DNA of 64,000 nt from Pyruvatibacter sp. HU-CL02332 (GTDB taxonomy: Bacteria; Pseudomonadota; Alphaproteobacteria; CGMCC-115125), in the NCBI RefSeq assembly GCF_040362765.1, contig NZ_BAABWK010000001.1, positions 1,031,501 to 1,095,500 on the forward strand. The letters run 5' to 3'. Shown here piece after piece: positions 54,654 through 64,000 of this stretch. Made by a program: the position numbers and the translations under genes. Below the pieces are notes generated by a model, which was given only the letters and a program-made list of their open reading frames with translations, was not told the DNA's origin and did no database searches. Positions within the stretch are counted from its first letter, which is position 1. Each line of letters opens with the position of its first letter.

Positions 54654-55568
54654 CTAGGCAACCTGCTCAAGAATGAGCGGTACCGAGATGCCGTGCGCGG
54701 CCAGAAGGTCGTCCTGGCTGCCATAGTTGTGAATGAACTCATCCTTGAGCGTGAAGGTGTGCAGCTTGCACTTGGCCTGAACGTCCCAGGCAATCTGCTT
54801 CACACGGGAGGACAGACCCCCCTCCGGCACATGGTCTTCAACCACGATGACCTGATCGTGGCCGTTGAGTGCGGCTTCAATGCCCGGACGGTCCAGCGGC
54901 TTGATCGTGTGTGCGGAAACAACAGACACAGACTTGCCCTTGGCTTCCAGTTCCTTGGCCACTTCCATGGCTTTGGCCATGATCGTGCCATAGGCAAGGA
55001 TGCAGACATCCGTGCCCTTCTGGATGTAGCGGATCTTGCCGAACTCGAACTTGTCCACGGCTGTATCGGTAAAGGTGGGCTCGCCCGCCTTGCCAATACG
55101 CAGATAGACAGGGCCTTCCTTCTGGTAAGCGCAATAGCGTGTCGCTTCCACAAGTTCAGCCGGGTCGCATGGTGCGAGCACACGCATGTTGGGAATGGCA
55201 CTCGCCACCGCAACGTCTTCCATCGTGTGATGCGTGCCGCCAAGCGTTGAATAGATAACGCCTGCGCCCATGCCCACAATCGTCACCGGCAGGTTCTGGT
55301 AGCCCAGATCATCACGCACCATTTCAAACGGGCGATAGAGCGTGAACGTCGCAATGGTGTAGGCAAATGGCTGGCAGCCCTTGAGCGCCAGACCGGCACA
55401 CATGCCGATCATCGTCTGTTCGGCCACGCCTACATTGATGAAGCGGTCTGGATGGTTGGTCTGGAAATCCATCATTGGGCCGGCAGGCGAAATGTCTGCC
55501 ACCACGATGTAGATGTCAGGGTTTTCGCTGGCGCACTCAAAGAGTGTCTGTGAGAACATATTGCGCAT
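54654..55568 (-). CDS. Transketolase C-terminal subunit
   Basis: The 304-residue protein corresponds to the Pyr and C-terminal domains of transketolase: FINVGVAEQTMIGMCAGLAL with the glutamate that activates thiamine diphosphate, TLGGTHHTMEDVAV, and VSVVSAHTIKPLD. Together with the partner subunit it forms a complete two-component transketolase that moves two-carbon units between sugar phosphates. Within a polysaccharide locus it is probably dedicated to making a sugar precursor. It overlaps the N-subunit gene by one base. Confidence 0.85.
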   Translation of the reverse strand: MRNMFSQTLFECASENPDIYIVVADISPAGPMMDFQTNHPDRFINVGVAEQTMIGMCAGLALKGCQPFAYTIATFTLYRPFEMVRDDLGYQNLPVTIVGMGAGVIYSTLGGTHHTMEDVAVASAIPNMRVLAPCDPAELVEATRYCAYQKEGPVYLRIGKAGEPTFTDTAVDKFEFGKIRYIQKGTDVCILAYGTIMAKAMEVAKELEAKGKSVSVVSAHTIKPLDRPGIEAALNGHDQVIVVEDHVPEGGLSSRVKQIAWDVQAKCKLHTFTLKDEFIHNYGSQDDLLAAHGISVPLILEQVA

Positions 55569-56410
55569 TAGTTGGCCTCGTCGATCTCGCGGATCGCCTG
55601 CTTGTATTCTTCAGGATCAGGCGAGCGGTAATGCCACATGGGCACGCTCTCCATGTAGGACACGCCTTTGCCCTTGGTTGTTTTGCAGTTCACCAGCAAC
55701 GGCTTGTCACCTGAGCGGTTCTGCACAGCATTGAAGATCGCTTCGCTGTCATGGCCGTCAACTTCAACAGCTTCCCAGCCAAACGCTTCGTACTTTTCAA
55801 CAACCGGATAGAAGCTTGGATGCGTGTCCGTGGTGAACGTCGCGCTCTGCATGTTGTTGTTGTCGATGAAAGCCACGAGGTTCGACACACCAAGCGACGA
55901 CGCCATCAGCGTTGCCTCCCAGGTGGAACCTTCCTGCACTTCACCGTCAGACATCACCGTGTAGATCGTGCCATTGGTGCCGCGGGTTTTCTCTGCATAC
56001 GCCATTCCCAGCGCCATGCCCATGCCATGGCCCAGCGAGCCGGTTGAGGCTTCGATACCCGGGTTGCCGTAGTCAGGATGCACCCCGAGGATACCGTGCG
56101 GTGTGCAATAGCCCCGCAGATGCTCCTCAGTGAGGATGCCAAGATCAACGAGCAGCATGACCTGAATCATGTAGCCGTGCCCCTTGGACATCAGGAAGGT
56201 GTCCGGAGCCTCATCCCCCACAGGATTGCCGTTGGGGCCTGGCCGCATCAGATTGTAGTAGATGCAATCCACGATCTCGGTAGACGAGAAAGCGCCGCCT
56301 ACATGGAGCGCCGTCACATACTGCGTCATGTCCAGGATGCGTTTGCGGTGACGCTTGCAGCGATCCTTCGCGGCAGCCACATCGAACGCGTTTTGTTCAG
56401 TTGCGGTCAT
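55568..56410 (-). CDS. Transketolase N-terminal subunit
   Basis: The 280-residue protein is the thiamine-diphosphate-binding half: FLMSKGHGYMI, GIEASTGSLGHGMGMALG, and the metal/TPP motif MSDGEVQEGSTWEA with FIDNNNMQ. In the usual GDG start of this motif the first glycine is serine here. It needs the adjacent C-subunit to be active. It overlaps the methyltransferase gene upstream by four bases and the C-subunit gene by one, so the three are tightly coupled. Confidence 0.87.
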   Translation of the reverse strand: MTATEQNAFDVAAAKDRCKRHRKRILDMTQYVTALHVGGAFSSTEIVDCIYYNLMRPGPNGNPVGDEAPDTFLMSKGHGYMIQVMLLVDLGILTEEHLRGYCTPHGILGVHPDYGNPGIEASTGSLGHGMGMALGMAYAEKTRGTNGTIYTVMSDGEVQEGSTWEATLMASSLGVSNLVAFIDNNNMQSATFTTDTHPSFYPVVEKYEAFGWEAVEVDGHDSEAIFNAVQNRSGDKPLLVNCKTTKGKGVSYMESVPMWHYRSPDPEEYKQAIREIDEAN

Positions 56411-57090
56411 TCGGTTTCCGTGTCCTCTCCAAGGATCAGCGTCCAGTAATAGTCGCCCTTGTATCCGGCTTCATCGAAGATGGCTTTCCACTCATCGGGA
56501 TACCCGTAGGTATAAGCGGTGAGAACCCAGTCCTCGAAAATCTCTTTTTCTTCCGGCGTGCGGTAGCTATCCACCTGCACATACGCCTTGTTGTCCCGCG
56601 CCACGCGCTGGATTTCAGACAGGGCGTTGATGAGCTGCGGCCGCTTCAGGTTATGCAGCGTGTTGAGGCAGATCACAGCGTCAAAGCTGTCGTCTGGAAA
56701 CAGCAGCGGGTCATTGAGGTCATGCTGATGCAGACGGCCTACGACTTCCGGTTCGCAATTCATCATCGCGTAACCTGAGATGTCAGAGCCGAAAGCCTGA
56801 ATGCCCGGCTCGGCAATCATGAAATCCTTGACCAGAAACCCCTTGGCACACCCAAGGTCCAGCACCCGGTCGCCCGGCTTCAGGTCCCAGTGCGCAATCA
56901 TGTCCTTGGCAATGGGGACCCAGCGGCCATCATAGCGGTAGCCGCCATAGCCGACTTCACGCGGTCCATCAAAATACTCTTCGCCATATTCACGCGACAG
57001 GGCGATCAGCTCATCCGTCTTTGAGGACGCGCGCTTTTCAATGTTGCGCTTCTTGCGCGGAAAGGCGCTCAGTAGATTGACTTCAGCCAT
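56407..57090 (-). CDS. Class I SAM-dependent methyltransferase
   Basis: The 227-residue enzyme has motif I VLDLGCAKGFLVKDF, acidic motif FGSDISGYAM and FDAVICLNTLHNLKRP. The N-terminal 35 residues are basic and helical. Being coupled to the transketolase genes, it probably methylates the sugar made by this locus, or a glycan end group. Substrate is inferred from context only. Confidence 0.8.
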   Translation of the reverse strand: MAEVNLLSAFPRKKRNIEKRASSKTDELIALSREYGEEYFDGPREVGYGGYRYDGRWVPIAKDMIAHWDLKPGDRVLDLGCAKGFLVKDFMIAEPGIQAFGSDISGYAMMNCEPEVVGRLHQHDLNDPLLFPDDSFDAVICLNTLHNLKRPQLINALSEIQRVARDNKAYVQVDSYRTPEEKEIFEDWVLTAYTYGYPDEWKAIFDEAGYKGDYYWTLILGEDTETE

Positions 57091-57150: not shown

Positions 57151-58626
57151 TTATGGCTGCGGGGCATTCAAGTCGGCGTCCTGGGTGAGCCGCACCGCAA
57201 TATGCTTTGCCACCAGTTCATTGCCTGCATTCGACATGTGACCAAAAATGCGGCCTTCGTCATGCATTACGAACAAGCCACGGTAGGCATCCATATCGCG
57301 CAGACCAATATCCTTCTGCGGCTGCCACATATCCAAAGTGTCTATGCCCGCCTCTCGCGCGCAGTCGAGCACGTCAGCGGCGTGCGGCTGACGTTCGACA
57401 ATATCAATGGCTGCACGCCCGCCGAACTGCATGACAAACAGCAAACGCACGTCCGCAGCATCAAGGTCAGTCTGCAGTTTTTCAAGCAGCTTGCAGCTCA
57501 CAGCGACAGGGTCATTGCCCGCCGATACATAGCTGGTCTGCGATCGCGCCCAGTAGCCGCCAAAACCGGTACGCTCTGCAACAAAGGTCACCAGATAGGA
57601 ATAGCCAAGGACGCTTAGTCCCCCCACTTCCTCAGCCTTCCCTGTAAACAGGGGCACGGGATCATAATGGCGAACCAACGCGCCATCCTCGACGGTGAAC
57701 CATGGCTTGTTTGACCCTGCATAGGTCCGATACCCGCTGCGCAGGATGTCATCCTGAAAGAACGACACGACCACAGTGTGCGGCTCAACAACCGGCAACA
57801 GGTCATAGACCCGGCGTACAATCTGATCTGTCGCCCACCCACCGACGCCGCCATTGACCACCGGAACGTCGATCATCTGTTCCAGTCGCGCTGGCCACGT
57901 ATATTTGTTGCCGACTTCAGAGCCGGCAGTAAACGAGTCGCCAGTAGCAAGGATGCCGCCTTTGGGCAGTACCGACTTCATTTCAAAATCGTTCATCCGC
58001 ACGCCGTGAACGCCGGTAGTGACGGAAACGCCCTCCGGGTTGGCGGGATTGCCCGGCATGTTGGGCGCAAGTACCCAGCCCAAATCAGGATGATAGACAT
58101 TCGCCGTCTGAGTCCGCAGCAGGGCCTGACGCTCAGCAGTGATGTTTCTGAGCGGCCAGAAATCGATCCCGTCCATCACCCGCACAACCACTTCGAGGAA
58201 GATGAGCCCAACCAGCACTGACGCGAGTACGACACCAGAATTTCCAAGAAAGACCTTGAAGGTTTTCCAACGGGCCGAGTCGCGGTCCGGCAGTCCGACA
58301 TAGGCCACAACCGCCAGCAATCCGGCAAACAGGATCGCAAAAAGCATCAAAATAACGGTGGCAGTCCGTGACCAGCCAAATGCGAGGTAAAGGTAGAAGG
58401 CCTCTGTCAGCCCTAGCCCCAGCGGCTTTGCCAGAAAGGCCGAAGCCATGAGGAGAAGCGCAATAGCAAAGAGGCCGACTGCCACAAGGGCCAGCGTGGG
58501 CAATTGCCAATCGATTCTCTGCCATTGAGCGGAAATTTGCGATCGCGCTCGTTCAAACGCTTCAGCGATGGCCTTCACCGGCGTCCCCCGACCCCAAATA
58601 GCTGATTTTATTGGCCCGACGGCCAT
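57151..58626 (-). CDS. Membrane-anchored SGNH-hydrolase-like protein
   Basis: The 491-residue protein has three N-terminal membrane helices (within about residues 45-170). A C-terminal domain follows with ILATGDSFTAGSEVG, the GDS block of SGNH/GDSL esterases, and GGVGGWATDQIVRR as the second block. A late H-containing segment near HMSNAGNELVAKHIA is the likely block V. Such proteins can transfer or remove acyl groups on exported glycans. It heads the leftward group and is divergent from the SIS gene with 74 bases between. Confidence 0.75.
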   Translation of the reverse strand: MAVGPIKSAIWGRGTPVKAIAEAFERARSQISAQWQRIDWQLPTLALVAVGLFAIALLLMASAFLAKPLGLGLTEAFYLYLAFGWSRTATVILMLFAILFAGLLAVVAYVGLPDRDSARWKTFKVFLGNSGVVLASVLVGLIFLEVVVRVMDGIDFWPLRNITAERQALLRTQTANVYHPDLGWVLAPNMPGNPANPEGVSVTTGVHGVRMNDFEMKSVLPKGGILATGDSFTAGSEVGNKYTWPARLEQMIDVPVVNGGVGGWATDQIVRRVYDLLPVVEPHTVVVSFFQDDILRSGYRTYAGSNKPWFTVEDGALVRHYDPVPLFTGKAEEVGGLSVLGYSYLVTFVAERTGFGGYWARSQTSYVSAGNDPVAVSCKLLEKLQTDLDAADVRLLFVMQFGGRAAIDIVERQPHAADVLDCAREAGIDTLDMWQPQKDIGLRDMDAYRGLFVMHDEGRIFGHMSNAGNELVAKHIAVRLTQDADLNAPQP

Positions 58627-58700
58627 TGCTGCATTGCATTGCCGCGATGTGCCGGGTACATGAGCGGGTCTTACGAAATGAAGAGCAGAGGCGCAAGCAA

Positions 58701-59285
58701 ATGAGCCACGCAGAGAACTTTTTTAAGCTGGCCGCAGACATCGCCCTAGGCCTCCCCGCAGCTGATGTGGATCGGATGGCCCAGGAGCTTGCAGACCTGC
58801 GTGAACGCGGCGGCCGCCTCTTTATTCTGGGTGTTGGCGGCAGTGCCGGCAATTGCAGTCATGCCGTCAATGACTTCCGCAAGCTCTGCAATGTCGAAGC
58901 CTATGCGCCGGTCGACAATGTGTCCGAGCTTACAGCCCGTGCAAACGACGAAGGCTGGGACACGATCTTCGACGCGTGGATGAAAGTCAGCCGCGCCAAT
59001 GAGAAAGACGCGATTCTTGTATTCTCAGTTGGCGGCGGGAACAAAGAGAAGAACATCAGCCCGAACATCGTCAAAGCTGTCGATCTGGCCAAGGAACTTG
59101 GCATGAAGATCTTCGGTGTGGTGGGCAAGGACACCGGCCACACCGCCAAGCACGGCGACATCGTGGTGGTTGTTCCAAATCCTGATCCTGATCTGGTGAC
59201 CCCGCACTCAGAAGCTTTCCAGGCCGTTGTCTGGCATTGCCTCGTGTCGCACCCAGCTTTGCAGGTAAAATCAACCAAGTGGTAG
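58701..59285 (+). CDS. SIS-domain sugar-phosphate isomerase, GmhA-like
   Basis: The 194-residue protein has a GmhA-like SIS domain with FILGVGGSAGNCSHAVNDFR and FSVGGGNKEKNISPN. VPNPDPDLVTPHSEAFQAVV corresponds to the substrate-binding C-terminal region. GmhA turns sedoheptulose 7-phosphate into heptose 7-phosphate. The motif order supports an aldose-ketose isomerase on a long-chain sugar, but the residues after VGGGN differ from classic GmhA, so the substrate is uncertain. AGAGG precedes the ATG at 58701. It overlaps the phosphatase gene by 7 bases. Confidence 0.82.
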   Translation: MSHAENFFKLAADIALGLPAADVDRMAQELADLRERGGRLFILGVGGSAGNCSHAVNDFRKLCNVEAYAPVDNVSELTARANDEGWDTIFDAWMKVSRANEKDAILVFSVGGGNKEKNISPNIVKAVDLAKELGMKIFGVVGKDTGHTAKHGDIVVVVPNPDPDLVTPHSEAFQAVVWHCLVSHPALQVKSTKW

Positions 59286-59839
59286 CAGGACCGGCCGGTT
59301 CTGACCTCAAGCGGGCCGTTTTCCTTGATCGGGACGGCATTATCAATGAGTCCGTCGTCCGCAACGGCAAGCCCTATCCGCCCGCAACACTTGAGGATGT
59401 TGTCATCCTGCCCGGCGTCAAAGACGCGCTAGAGCGTCTGAAGGCAGCCGGCTATCTTACCATCATCGCCACCAACCAGCCTGATGTGACCACAGGGAAA
59501 CAGTTGCAGTCGGTTGTAGATGCTATTCACGACATGATGCGCGAAACACTGGCACTGGATGATATCCGTGCCTGCTTTTGCGTTGAAGGGCCTGATTGCC
59601 CATGCTACAAGCCAAAACCTGGCCTCCTGACCGAAGCGGCAAAAGACTGGAAAGTCGAATTAAAACAAAGCTTTATGGTCGGAGACAGGTGGCGTGATGT
59701 TGGCGCTGGACAGGCGGCAGGCTGCACCACCTTCTTTGTGGACTATGGCTATCACGAAGACCTCACTTTCACTCCGGACTTTACAGTTTCGGGGCTGAGC
59801 GAGGCGGCAGACATTATTATTTCCGGGCGCGCCGACTGA
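59279..59839 (+). CDS. HAD-IIIA phosphatase, GmhB-like
   Basis: The 186-residue protein has the HAD motif I VFLDRDGIINE, TIIATNQPDV as motif II, and KPKPGLL with GDRWRDVGAGQAAGC for motifs III and IV. GmhB binds zinc through a Cys-x-His...Cys-x-Cys set. Here the loop is CFCVEGPDCPC, with four cysteines and a shorter span. It would dephosphorylate the C7 (or equivalent) position of an aldose bisphosphate. The GTG at 59279 overlaps the SIS gene; the exact start is uncertain. Confidence 0.82.
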   Translation: MVAGPAGSDLKRAVFLDRDGIINESVVRNGKPYPPATLEDVVILPGVKDALERLKAAGYLTIIATNQPDVTTGKQLQSVVDAIHDMMRETLALDDIRACFCVEGPDCPCYKPKPGLLTEAAKDWKVELKQSFMVGDRWRDVGAGQAAGCTTFFVDYGYHEDLTFTPDFTVSGLSEAADIIISGRAD

Positions 59840-59896
59840 TTTTCAGCTATCGCACCGTTGAAACTTGAAATTGTGCTTATTGGGGGGATGTACCAG

Positions 59897-60637
59897 ATGC
59901 GCAAAGTTGAAGACCTGAAGGTCAAGATTTTCGCCGACGGCGCCGATATCGATGCGATGCTCAAGCTCGCAGAAAATCCGCTGGTTAAAGGCTTCACCAC
60001 CAACCCGACGCTGATGCGCAAGGCTGGCGTTGAGGATTATGCGGGCTTTGCCCACAAAGTGATTGCGGCCATCCCGAACCACCCTCTTTCATTTGAAGTC
60101 TTTGCTGACGATGTAGCCGAGATGGAAGCGCAGGCGCTGGAAATTGCTTCCTGGGGCAAGAACGTCAACGTCAAGATCCCCGTGACCAATACCAAGGGTG
60201 AGTCGACGGTTCCTGCCATCCGCGCGATTTCAGCCAAAGGCGTGCAGGCAAATGTGACTGCCGTATTCACTCTGGATCAGGTGCGCGAGATCACAGACGC
60301 GCTGGACGCAGACACACCCGCCATCATTTCAGTCTTCGCTGGTCGCATTGCTGACACGGGCATCGACCCTGTGCCCGTCATGGCCGAAGCTGCCAAGATC
60401 ATGAAGTCAAAGCCAAAGGCTGAACTTCTCTGGGCAAGCCCGCGCGAACTCCTGAACATCTATCACGCTGAAGACAGCGGCAGCCACATCATCACCGTGG
60501 CCCACGATATCCTCGGCAAGCTCGGCCTCATTGGCAAAGACCTGGACCAGTACTCACTGGAAACAGTGGACATGTTCTACAAGGACGCCACTGCGGTCGG
60601 TTACACGATCAACACCAATTCTCAGGCTGCGGAATAA
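59897..60637 (+). CDS. Transaldolase-family enzyme (short form)
   Basis: The 246-residue barrel enzyme has KGFTTNPTLMRKAG at the start of the barrel and the Schiff-base lysine Lys93 in VNVKIPVTNTKG. LLWASPRELLN lies late in the chain. It belongs to the short TalC/fructose-6-phosphate aldolase-like group rather than full-length TalB. It can move or release a three-carbon dihydroxyacetone unit. Its place between the HAD phosphatase and epimerase genes suggests it supplies a ketose phosphate such as sedoheptulose 7-phosphate. GGGGGG sits about 9 bases before ATG 59897. Confidence 0.85.
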   Translation: MRKVEDLKVKIFADGADIDAMLKLAENPLVKGFTTNPTLMRKAGVEDYAGFAHKVIAAIPNHPLSFEVFADDVAEMEAQALEIASWGKNVNVKIPVTNTKGESTVPAIRAISAKGVQANVTAVFTLDQVREITDALDADTPAIISVFAGRIADTGIDPVPVMAEAAKIMKSKPKAELLWASPRELLNIYHAEDSGSHIITVAHDILGKLGLIGKDLDQYSLETVDMFYKDATAVGYTINTNSQAAE

Positions 60638-60732: not shown

Positions 60733-61737
60733 GTGTTCAAGAATGTGCTTGTGACCGGCGGTGCCGGCTATGTGGGAAGCCTGCTGGTACCGCAGCTTCT
60801 GGACGAGGGCTACAACGTGACTGTCTTTGACATCATGTTTTTTGGCGATGACTTCCTGCCCAAGGACAACCCCAACCTGAAGATCATCAAGGGCGACATT
60901 CGCGAAACCGCGAAACTGGCCGAAGCCTTCAAGGGCATTGATGCAGTCATCAGCCTCGCCTGCATTTCCAACGACGCAAGCTTCGAGCTGGACGCGAACC
61001 TTTCAACCTCCATCAACATGGATGCGTTTGAACCAATGGTCATCGCGGCGAAGGAAGCAGGCGTTAAGCGCTTCGTCTACGCGTCATCATCTTCCGTATA
61101 CGGCATTTCTGACTCACCCAACGTGACTGAAGACCACCCGCTTGTACCGCTCACGCAGTACAACGAGTACAAAGGTCTGTGTGAACCTCTTCTCTTCAAG
61201 CATCAAAGCGATGACTTTGTATGCGTGACCATCCGTCCGGCCACACTGTGCGGCTACGCACCGCGCCAGCGCCTCGACCTGTCGGTCAACATTCTCACCA
61301 ATCACGCTGTGAACAACGGCAAGATCACAGTGTTCGGCGGCACACAGAAGCGCCCGAACCTGCACGTGGCCGACATGTGCGATCTGTATTCGCACCTGTT
61401 GAAGGAAGACTCCGCCAAGATCGCCGGCGAAGTCTTCAATGCAGGCTTCCAGAACATGTCCATCATGGAAATTGCTGAACTGGCCCAGAAGGTCGTTCAG
61501 GAACTCTTCCCTGAAAAGGGCGAGATCGAAATTGTCACGACACCGACGGACGACAACCGCTCCTACCATGTGAACTCCGACAAGATCCGCAAGCAGCTGG
61601 GCTTTGAGCCCAAGCGCAATGTGGAAATCGCGATCCGCGATCTTTGCCAGGCGTTCAAGGAAAACAAGCTGCCAGACAGCATGACCGACGACTTCTACTT
61701 CAATGTGAAGCGTCTGAAAGCCATGGAAGCCGCATGA
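60733..61737 (+). CDS. NAD-dependent nucleotide-sugar epimerase/dehydratase (SDR)
   Basis: The 334-residue extended SDR has VTGGAGYVGSLLVPQLLDEG for NAD binding. It has YASSSSVYGISD for the catalytic serine region and YNEYKGLCE as the YxxxK pair. It starts at a GTG at 60733. It resembles many extended SDRs acting on CDP-, GDP- or UDP-sugars in surface glycan loci. Its stop overlaps the next gene (ATGA). An HldD-type C6 epimerisation of an NDP-heptose is one possibility. Confidence 0.82.
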   Translation: MFKNVLVTGGAGYVGSLLVPQLLDEGYNVTVFDIMFFGDDFLPKDNPNLKIIKGDIRETAKLAEAFKGIDAVISLACISNDASFELDANLSTSINMDAFEPMVIAAKEAGVKRFVYASSSSVYGISDSPNVTEDHPLVPLTQYNEYKGLCEPLLFKHQSDDFVCVTIRPATLCGYAPRQRLDLSVNILTNHAVNNGKITVFGGTQKRPNLHVADMCDLYSHLLKEDSAKIAGEVFNAGFQNMSIMEIAELAQKVVQELFPEKGEIEIVTTPTDDNRSYHVNSDKIRKQLGFEPKRNVEIAIRDLCQAFKENKLPDSMTDDFYFNVKRLKAMEAA

Positions 61738-62750
61738 GTAAGAAGCCTGTCGCTGTTGTAACCGGTGGAGCGGGCTTCATCGGAAGCCATATGGTTGATC
61801 TGCTCGTTGACGAGGGCTTTGAAGTCCGCGTCATCGACAGCCTGATCGGTGGTCGCGAAGCCAATATCGAGCATCACGCCAAAAACGACGTGACTGCCGA
61901 GTGGCGCGACATCCGCTCGCTGCAGCCCGGCGACAAGCTCTTCTCTGAAGTGGACTATGTGTTCCACTTTGCTGGCATCGGCGACATCGTGCCGTCGATC
62001 GAGCAGCCGCTTGAATATATGTCTGCGAACGTTCAGGGCACGGTCCACGTGCTCGAAGCAGCGCGCGCAGCGGGCACACTGAAGAAGCTTGTGTATGCCT
62101 CTTCGTCCTCCTGCTACGGTATGGCGCAGACGCCGACCCGCGAAGACCACCCCATCGAGCCGAAATACCCCTATGCCCTGTCAAAGTATCAGGGCGAACA
62201 GGCGGTGTTCCACTGGCACGAGGTCTATGGCCTTCCCGCCAACGCGGTTCGTATTTTCAATGCCTATGGCACCCGCTCGCGCACTTCTGGTGCCTATGGC
62301 GCGGTATTCGGCGTGTTCCTGCGTCAGAAGTTGGCCAACACCCCCTATACGGTTGTTGGAGACGGCACCCAGAGCCGCGACTTTGTGTACGCCAGTGACG
62401 TCGCCAATGCGTTCTACCTCGCAGGCATCTCAGACACTGTGGGCCAGGCCTACAATATGGGTGCGGGCGACCCTCAGTCCGTGAACAAGCTCGTTGAGCT
62501 GCTCGGCGGCGAAGTCACCTACATTCCCAAGCGTCCCGGCGAGCCCGACTGCACATTTGCAGACATCACAAAAATCACGAAGGAACTTGGGTGGAAACCC
62601 AAAGTATCTTTTGAAGAAGGCGTTCAGCGCATCGTCCAGAACATCGGCTATTGGGCGGAAGCTCCCCTGTGGGACCCGGACTCAATTGCCAAGGCCACGA
62701 AGACATGGTTCGAGATGCTGTCGCCTGAAGAAGAGTCAAAGAAGAGCTAG
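61734..62750 (+). CDS. NAD-dependent nucleotide-sugar epimerase (SDR)
   Basis: The 338-residue extended SDR has VTGGAGFIGSHMVDLLVDEG, FHFAGIGDIVPSIEQPLEYM, the serine region YASSSSCYGMAQ and YALSKYQGEQ. The C-terminal FNAYGTRSRTSGAYGAVFGV is typical of UDP-glucose/GDP-mannose-type epimerases. It overlaps the preceding epimerase gene by four bases. The two may carry out successive inversions of one sugar, as in bacterial GDP-heptose pathways, but that is inference. Confidence 0.85.
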   Translation: MSKKPVAVVTGGAGFIGSHMVDLLVDEGFEVRVIDSLIGGREANIEHHAKNDVTAEWRDIRSLQPGDKLFSEVDYVFHFAGIGDIVPSIEQPLEYMSANVQGTVHVLEAARAAGTLKKLVYASSSSCYGMAQTPTREDHPIEPKYPYALSKYQGEQAVFHWHEVYGLPANAVRIFNAYGTRSRTSGAYGAVFGVFLRQKLANTPYTVVGDGTQSRDFVYASDVANAFYLAGISDTVGQAYNMGAGDPQSVNKLVELLGGEVTYIPKRPGEPDCTFADITKITKELGWKPKVSFEEGVQRIVQNIGYWAEAPLWDPDSIAKATKTWFEMLSPEEESKKS

Positions 62751-62758
62751 ACCAGACA

Positions 62759-64000
62759 TGGTTGAGAATAAATACAAAGCGAAAATCAAGACGGTCGAAG
62801 AGCTGGTTGATGCCATCGGCACCCGTCCCCGGCAGCAAAAGGTCATCATGTGCCACGGCACATTCGACGTTGTGCACCCTGGGCACATCCGCCATCTGAT
62901 GTATGCAGGCGGCAAGGCTGATGTTCTCGTTGCCAGCCTTACTGCAGACGAACACATCAAGAAGGCCAACTTCCGCCCGTATGTCCCAGAAGAGCTGCGC
63001 GCGCTTAACCTCGCTGCCCTCGACATGGTCGACTACGTCATCATCGACAAGAACGAAGCGCCGCTGGAAAACCTCAGCCGCATCCAGCCGGATTACTTTG
63101 CCAAGGGCTATGAGTACGTCTCAAGCGGCCTGCCGCCCAAGACCCAGGCTGAAAAAGACATTCTCGACAGCTATGGCGGGGAGTTCATCTTCACGCCGGG
63201 CGACATTGTCTACTCTTCTTCCCGCATCATTGAGGCAGCTCCACCAAAGATCGGTGCAGACAAACTGCTGTCTTTGATGGAAGCCGAAGGCATCACCTTT
63301 GACGACCTGCGCAACACGCTCTCAAAAATGAAGGGCGTGAAAGCGCATGTGGTAGGCGACACGATCGTCGATACCTACACCTACACAGCCATGATCGGCG
63401 GCCAGACCAAGACACCGACAATCTCTGTTCGGTATGAAGGCCAGGACGATTATGTCGGCGGCGCCGGCATTGTGGCCAAGCACCTCAACGCCGCAGGCGC
63501 GGACGTGACCTTCTCAACGGTGCTGGGCGACGACAAGTGGCGCAGCTTCGTGATTGATGACCTGCGCACCGCAGGCGTGCACATGCGCGAAGTCATCGAT
63601 GAAACACGCCCGACCACCAACAAGAACGCTATCGTCTGTGCGGATTACCGCATGCTGAAAGTCGATACCCTCGACAATCGCACGATCTCGGAAGCCATCG
63701 TCGAAAAGCTGGTGGACGCCATCAAGACAGTTGAAAGCGACTGCGTTGTTTTCTCCGACTTCCGCCACGGCATTTTCAACAAGGCAACAATCCCCACCCT
63801 TAGTGCCGCCATTCCCGAAGGCATGTTCAAGGTCGCGGACAGCCAGGTCGCGAGTCGCTGGGGTGATATCTGTGAATTCCAGGGCTTTGATCTGATCACG
63901 CCCAATGAGCGCGAAGCGCGCTTCTCTCTTTCGGATCAGGACAGCGTCGTCCGCCCGCTTGCTCAGAAGCTCTACGAAGTATCAAAAGCCAAGAACCTGA
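62759..64000 (+). CDS. Nucleotidyltransferase-PfkB kinase fusion (HldE domains in reverse order), cut by window edge
   Basis: From ATG 62759 the frame stays open to base 64000, at least 414 residues. Residues 1-150 form a cytidylyltransferase-like domain with CHGTFDVVHPGHIRHL (HxGH). Residues from about 195 on form a PfkB sugar kinase, with VVGDTIVDTYTYTA and YVGGAGIVAKHLNAAGADV. Later segments include VVFSDFRHGIFN and FDLITPNEREARF. In HldE the kinase comes first and the nucleotidyltransferase last; here the order is inverted. It would phosphorylate a heptose-7-phosphate-like sugar and later activate it to an NDP-sugar. Confidence 0.85.

What the first reader, a model, noticed from the sequence alone, without database searches (positions are those of the whole stretch)
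62759..64000. HldE-like fusion with inverted domain order
The nucleotidyltransferase (CHGTFDVVHPGHI) precedes the PfkB kinase (VVGDTIVDTYTYTA). In canonical HldE the kinase comes first. This suggests an independent fusion, and possibly a different nucleotide or sugar.
Basis: partly seen in the sequence, partly recalled or inferred. Interest (0 to 1): 0.65.

Follow-up and report, generated by a model that had tools for sequence, protein, structure and literature searches.

The report
Reversed-order sugar kinase–nucleotidyltransferase fusion
The protein really is an HldE-like enzyme with its two halves in swapped order; it belongs to a widespread, barely studied family found in gene clusters for unusual surface sugars, including the cluster behind the ten-carbon plant-symbiont sugar bradyrhizose, so it probably activates a rare large sugar rather than the standard LPS heptose.

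Summary
Observation confirmed. The gene starts at 62758 and runs past the window (515 aa). A cytidylyltransferase-like domain (res. 32-158) precedes a PfkB kinase (198-493). The same genome keeps a normal-order HldE elsewhere. The order is not unique or unreported: it is published for Coxiella CBU0678 ("reversed domain arrangement", function unknown). I found 80/80 database homologues in the same order, in records from 14 phyla by name. In trees the kinases of all inverted fusions form one clade apart from HldE; the nucleotidyltransferase halves also lie outside HldE. Catalytic residues are conserved; several positions fixed in HldE are changed.

The gene sits in a strongly conserved operon: SIS isomerase, HAD phosphatase, transaldolase, two SDRs, fusion, Gfo/Idh/MocA, a UDP-Glc-dehydrogenase homologue without its catalytic Cys, SDR, often methyltransferase and split transketolase. 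In a second cluster type, GHMP kinase plus NTP-transferase occupy the fusion's slot, matching lincosamide octose genes. More distant inverted fusions lie in all eight Bradyrhizobium clusters carrying gdh, the gene whose disruption abolishes bradyrhizose. Most likely function: 1-kinase plus NDP-transferase for a higher-carbon (C7-C8+) surface sugar. Nucleotide and sugar remain untested. New variant of a known kind.

The parts
62758..64000 (+). NT-PfkB inverted fusion (cut by window end; continues to window coordinate 64305 = G000:C1:1095805; 515 aa)
62851..63231 (+). N-terminal nucleotidyltransferase domain (PF01467, res. 32-158; HxGH = H40-H43)
63349..64000 (+). PfkB kinase domain (PF00294, res. 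198-493; GAGD catalytic Asp456 lies beyond the window end)
58701..59285 (+). SIS-domain ketose/aldose phosphate isomerase, GmhA-like but in a separate clade (ORF 58611-59285; probable ATG 58701)
59237..59839 (+). HAD-IIIA phosphatase, GmhB-like (below the GmhB cut-offs)
59858..60637 (+). transaldolase, TIGR02134 above cut-off (361 vs 282 bits); the only transaldolase of the genome
60733..61737 (+). SDR1, extended NAD-dependent epimerase/dehydratase
61734..62750 (+). SDR2, extended NAD-dependent epimerase/dehydratase; ends 7 nt before the fusion's ATG
56407..57090 (-). SAM-dependent methyltransferase-like protein, co-conserved with the operon
55568..56410 (-). split transketolase, N-terminal (TPP-binding) subunit
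54654..55568 (-). split transketolase, pyrimidine-binding/C-terminal subunit

Best explanation
The protein is a bifunctional enzyme that (i) phosphorylates C1 of an aldose phosphate with its C-terminal PfkB domain and, after an HAD phosphatase removes the other phosphate, (ii) transfers a nucleotide to the sugar 1-phosphate with its N-terminal domain, giving an NDP-sugar. Inferred route: transaldolase (perhaps also transketolase) builds a higher ketose phosphate; the SIS enzyme isomerises it to an aldose phosphate; fusion kinase; HAD; fusion NT; then SDR1/SDR2, the Gfo/Idh/MocA enzyme, the Cys-less UDP-Glc-DH homologue and SDR3 remodel the NDP-sugar for a surface polysaccharide. Shown here: domains, order, catalytic motifs, separate phylogeny, conserved operon, coexistence with canonical HldE. 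Inferred: substrates, step order, product. I think an eight-carbon precursor (octulose 8-P to NDP-octose, as in lincosamide biosynthesis) somewhat more likely than a heptose, because the pathway carries its own transaldolase and an isomerase outside the GmhA clade, and because a second cluster type with the same three front-end enzymes matches the lmb octose genes in kind.
For: Domains and residues; model pLDDT 82, kinase half best matched by HldA 4e8y/4e84 (TMt about 0.8). Canonical HldE kept in the same genome, so core heptose is already covered. Both domains outside HldE in trees. Operon: SDR2 directly upstream in 69/73 loci, Gfo directly downstream in 68/73; of 44 loci with 8.5 kb on both sides, UGD-like 43, SDR1 42, HAD 32, TAL 31, SIS 28. 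Replacement: five clusters carry the same SIS (54-61% id), HAD (29-52%) and TAL (58-61%) without the fusion; four of them carry a GHMP kinase, and three of those (L165, L181, L182) also a detected NTP_transferase, beside Gfo, SDR and a Cys-less UGD. This matches lmbR/N/K/P/O/L/Z in kind (PMC4351081, PMC12945683); LmbR makes octulose 8-P (PMC5854111). SIS of both cluster types forms one clade apart from GmhA (100/100). Operon carriers G047 and G054 also hold a general transaldolase. More distant fusions sit in all 8 Bradyrhizobium gdh clusters; gdh mutants lack bradyrhizose (PMC4743980).
Against: No activity, product or sugar analysis. No lmb sequence was reachable, so orthology to LmbR/N/L/Z is untested; the parallel is by family and order only. 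In the window genome the operon transaldolase is the only one, so it may also serve central metabolism, and its family TIGR02134 includes ordinary transaldolases. About 30% of well-flanked loci lack TAL or SIS nearby. The bradyrhizose cluster has no TAL, Gfo or UGD, and holds a separate NTP_transferase, so its fusion may work differently. Part of the NT fold (res. 149-161) is modelled poorly.
Confidence: 0.6

Rival explanations
1. A dedicated heptose (C7) route: sedoheptulose 7-phosphate is isomerised, phosphorylated and activated exactly as by HldE, but for an O-antigen or capsule heptose, with a different anomer, epimer or nucleotide. Only fusion order and downstream steps differ.
For: Nearest solved kinase is HldA and nearest NTs are HldC-type; SIS and HAD are GmhA/GmhB-like. 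Other bacteria use second heptose sets for surface glycans (general knowledge).
Against: Sedoheptulose 7-P is a central metabolite that canonical HldE already draws on in this genome, so an operon-borne transaldolase is hard to explain; the SIS enzyme is not in the GmhA clade; fixed residue changes in both domains.
Confidence: 0.25
2. A redundant ADP-heptose synthase: same reaction and product as HldE, the inverted order having no functional meaning.
For: Same two domain families, intact catalytic residues.
Against: HldE coexists in the window genome and in most inverted-fusion carriers among relatives; NCBIfam HldE models score far below cut-off (139 vs 521 bits; domains 130 vs 345 and 83 vs 181.5) while the genome's own HldE passes both domain models; conserved attachment to a non-LPS-core operon. 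In Coxiella the reversed CBU0678 and the normal-order CBU1655 have different LPS phenotypes (PMC5843353).
Confidence: 0.07
3. Only one half works in vivo, for example the kinase, with nucleotide transfer done by another enzyme.
For: The bradyrhizose cluster encodes a separate NTP_transferase next to the fusion, and its NT C-terminal motif has drifted.
Against: In the window-type family both HxGH and the C-terminal Ser motif, and GAGD, are invariant or nearly so across 84 sequences.
Confidence: 0.08

Closest known systems
CBU0678 of Coxiella burnetii (PMC5843353; phylogeny in PMC5423948)
   Same: Described there as HldE-like with reversed domain order; upstream genes of its operon are annotated phosphoheptose isomerase (CBU0674), UDP-glucose 4-epimerase (CBU0676) and NAD-dependent epimerase/dehydratase (CBU0677), as upstream of the window gene; a normal-order HldE (CBU1655) coexists.
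   Different: Sequence not compared here (the genome could not be identified in the collections). Published role is LPS phase I O-antigen; biochemical function stated as unknown.
HldE (RfaE), ADP-heptose synthase
   Same: Same two domain families and catalytic motifs.
   Different: Opposite order; separate clades in both domains; below HldE/rfaE model cut-offs; different operon.
Bradyrhizose O-antigen gene cluster (gdh cluster, PMC4743980)
   Same: Contains an inverted NT-PfkB fusion (about 30% id) with SDR1 (43%), SIS (32-34%), split transketolase (36-40%) and methyltransferase (42%) homologues.
   Different: No TAL, Gfo or UGD homologue found; has gdh, a separate NTP_transferase, a zinc-type ADH and an APH-family kinase.
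Lincosamide octose genes lmbR/N/K/P/O/M/L/Z (PMC4351081, PMC12945683)
   Same: Same sequence of enzyme kinds: transaldolase, SIS isomerase, phosphatase, kinase, nucleotidyltransferase, epimerase, dehydrogenase, oxidoreductase.
   Different: lmb kinase and guanylyltransferase are separate proteins; no lmb sequences were available for comparison; no aminotransferase in the window operon.
HENases of Tang et al. (summarised in PMC11461863)
   Same: NDP-heptose nucleotidyltransferases occur alone, fused to a kinase, or fused to isomerase and kinase.
   Different: The passages read do not mention inverted order or this operon.

Membership tests
HldE (bifunctional ADP-heptose synthase) | PfkB kinase domain followed by cytidylyltransferase-like domain | tested here: not met
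   order reversed
HldE (bifunctional ADP-heptose synthase) | passes NCBIfam HldE / rfaE_dom_I / rfaE_dom_II cut-offs | tested here: not met
   139/521, 130/345, 83/181.5 bits; the genome's own HldE passes both domain models though not the whole-protein model (486/521)
HldE (bifunctional ADP-heptose synthase) | domains cluster with HldE domains in trees | tested here: not met
HldE (bifunctional ADP-heptose synthase) | catalytic residues of both domains | tested here: met
   HxGH, K69, R73, R81, GG, NxxE, GAGD conserved
HldE (bifunctional ADP-heptose synthase) | makes ADP-heptose from heptose 7-phosphate | not testable with these tools
   needs enzyme assay
CBU0678-type reversed fusion | NT domain before PfkB domain in one protein | tested here: met
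CBU0678-type reversed fusion | sequence orthology to CBU0678 | not tested
   no named Coxiella sequence reachable; match is by published domain description and operon annotation
Lincosamide-type octose pathway | set of transaldolase, SIS, HAD, kinase, NT, epimerase, dehydrogenase, Gfo oxidoreductase in one cluster | tested here: met
   (TAL and SIS absent nearby in about a third of homologous loci)
Lincosamide-type octose pathway | orthology to LmbR, LmbN, LmbL, LmbZ | not tested
   no lmb sequence in the reachable collections
Lincosamide-type octose pathway | octulose 8-phosphate / octose product | not testable with these tools
   needs assay

The most novel reading that the evidence does not exclude
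The inverted NT-PfkB fusion is the activating enzyme of a widespread, undescribed class of NDP-higher-sugar pathways (C8 octoses, and C10 sugars such as bradyrhizose) used in surface polysaccharides of many phyla; the Cys-less UDP-Glc-dehydrogenase homologue of the window-type operon makes a keto- or dialdo-sugar intermediate instead of a uronic acid.
Probability: 0.33. Interest if true: 0.75.

Novelty: new variant of a known kind. Interest (0 to 1): 0.55.

Why it matters
The reversed fusion has been a footnote (one published gene, function unknown). Treating it as a family gives a candidate biosynthetic logic for an O-antigen sugar operon in records from 14 phyla, a candidate enzyme set for bradyrhizose (whose genes were stated to be unknown beyond an 11-gene cluster), and an unexpected bridge to lincosamide octose chemistry. 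Each step can be tested with purified enzymes from harmless bacteria.

Tried and rejected
Frame from 62759 (wrong by one base). Chance or frameshift fusion: rejected by 80/80 collinear homologues. Circular permutation of HldE within this lineage: disfavoured, since both domains are deep separate clades. STTR5 rule for CTP/UTP use (PMC11461863): the window motif reads ...GDIVYSSSR, which aligns poorly with the (F/L)XXGXSTT consensus; no conclusion. Finding lmb genes: no Streptomyces genome handle could be used as a centre. The sampled 'phylum of G059' was first taken for Actinomycetota from the record name; one member carries lpxA/fabZ-like DNA, so that label was dropped. Virenose as product, as proposed for the Coxiella region: virenose schemes run from GDP-mannose-type hexoses and do not need TAL/SIS/kinase; not adopted. 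Rhizobium CB3090 (L015) turned out to be canonical order, and marine virus AG-345-P14 has the two domains as separate ORFs. gdh primers do not match the window-type loci, only the Bradyrhizobium clusters.

Full report
Observation. The frame is real: ATG at 62758, seven bases after the stop of the preceding SDR gene, and the ORF leaves the window. The window is G000:C1:1031501-1095500 of a 3.45-Mb genome. The full protein has 515 aa. Pfam finds a cytidylyltransferase-like domain at 32-158 and a PfkB kinase at 198-493, both above cut-off. HldE-type NCBIfam models are the best hits but far below their cut-offs. The same genome has a canonical-order HldE (498 aa, kinase first) at C1:1711872-1713368, which passes both rfaE domain models. 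So this is a second, different protein.

How common. In 59 relatives, eight genomes had full-length collinear matches, in two bands of identity (65-100% and 27-31%). A scan of GTDB species contigs gave 97 relatives, 80 kept, 56-75% identical; 80 of 80 have the NT-kinase order. By the names on the records they come from 14 phyla; most are MAGs, and some names are doubtful, so the count is approximate. Annotated plasmids hold two more distant examples, in Solidesulfovibrio and Azospirillum, called only 'PfkB family carbohydrate kinase'.

Already published. Beare et al. [quoted passage not shown] its operon neighbours are annotated phosphoheptose isomerase and two epimerase/dehydratases, and a normal-order HldE homologue serves the inner core. 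PMC5423948 places CBU_0678 nearest to alphaproteobacterial genes. The order as such is therefore not new. I could not compare sequences directly.

Phylogeny and residues. In trees, kinase domains of inverted fusions form one clade (100/100) apart from HldE, also after adding the Bradyrhizobium set. NT domains of window-type fusions are one clade (100/100); the inverted NTs lie outside HldE, with standalone NTs near them, and a single NT origin is not shown once Bradyrhizobium is added (26% of bootstraps). Branches are long, so placement is approximate. HxGH, K69, R73, R81, S153, GG234-235, T286, K289, N383, E386 and GAGD453-456 are kept; fixed changes against HldE include T to C32, N to H33, N to T62, STT to SSS, R to G214, E to K218, N to H242 and K to H337. 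These suggest, but do not prove, changed specificity. The model (pLDDT 82) matches HldA best over the kinase half.

Operon. Across 80 loci the order SIS-HAD-TAL-SDR1-SDR2-fusion-Gfo-UGD-SDR3, often with methyltransferase and split transketolase, recurs. SDR2 is directly upstream in 69/73 and Gfo directly downstream in 68/73; in 44 well-flanked loci: UGD 43, Gfo 43, SDR1 42, SDR3 41, HAD 32, TAL 31, MT 31, SIS 28, TK 18. The window genome has Gfo, UGD-like, SDR3 and a UDP-galactopyranose-mutase-like gene just beyond the window, and MT and the transketolase pair on the opposite strand inside it.

Missing cysteine. All window-type operon UGD homologues whose motif was read have Asn where canonical enzymes have the Cys of GGSCFPKD; in a sample of ordinary UGDs from other genomes the Cys is present. 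The Lys/Asn pair of the active site is retained. Since that Cys carries the aldehyde-to-acid step in known UGDs (general knowledge), this enzyme probably does not make a uronic acid.

Replacement clusters. Four of these five carry a GHMP kinase; three (L165, L181, L182) also an NTP_transferase detected by similarity. All five carry Gfo, short-chain SDR and another Cys-less UGD (Thr in place of Cys). That is the roster of the lincosamide octose genes. The SIS enzymes of both cluster types form one clade apart from GmhA and from the SIS of the distant inverted fusions. TAL trees are not resolved enough to separate the two types from one general enzyme.

Transaldolase. The window genome has only the operon copy; its same-genus relative G001, without the fusion, has only a general one; carriers G047 and G054 have both.

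Bradyrhizose. Genes for bradyrhizose were called unknown; insertions in gdh, in an 11-gene cluster, abolish it, with possible polarity (PMC4743980). I used the published gdh primer as a search pattern: 8 of 272 genomes of that genus matched. The gdh ORF contains both primer peptides 381 bp apart, as expected for the 300-400 bp fragment. All eight loci show fusion-NTP_transferase-SDR1-SIS-gdh-TKn-TKc. Pfam confirms NT before PfkB. Bradyrhizose has ten carbons (PMC9912281). This ties an inverted fusion genetically, though indirectly, to a higher-carbon sugar.

Conclusion. The best reading is a kinase/nucleotidyltransferase that activates a higher-carbon sugar for a surface polysaccharide. Kinase-plus-NT function is well supported by homology; a sugar other than core heptose is likely; C8 over C7 is a preference, not a result; the nucleotide is open.

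Noticed in passing
G000:C1:1096783-1098069 (L010:11283-12569, beyond window end): UDP-Glc/GDP-Man dehydrogenase homologue lacking the catalytic Cys (GGSN; GGN in its operon homologues).
   Followed up: yes
L165, L166, L167, L181, L182: Second cluster type with the same SIS/HAD/TAL but no fusion; GHMP kinase in four of five, NTP_transferase in three, and a Cys-to-Thr UGD homologue.
   Followed up: partly
L213-L220 (Bradyrhizobium-genus genomes): Inverted NT-PfkB fusion upstream of gdh in all eight putative bradyrhizose clusters, next to a separate NTP_transferase.
   Followed up: yes
window 59858-60637: The operon transaldolase is the only transaldolase gene found in the genome; a same-genus relative has a general one instead.
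   Followed up: partly
L010:16329-19621 and L011:10026-13924; window 57151-58626: Several SGNH-hydrolase-like membrane proteins with similar layout cluster around the polysaccharide locus.
   Followed up: no
L016:7998-9150 (Marine virus AG-345-P14): A marine virus carries NT and PfkB-like domains as two adjacent overlapping ORFs in the same NT-then-kinase order.
   Followed up: no
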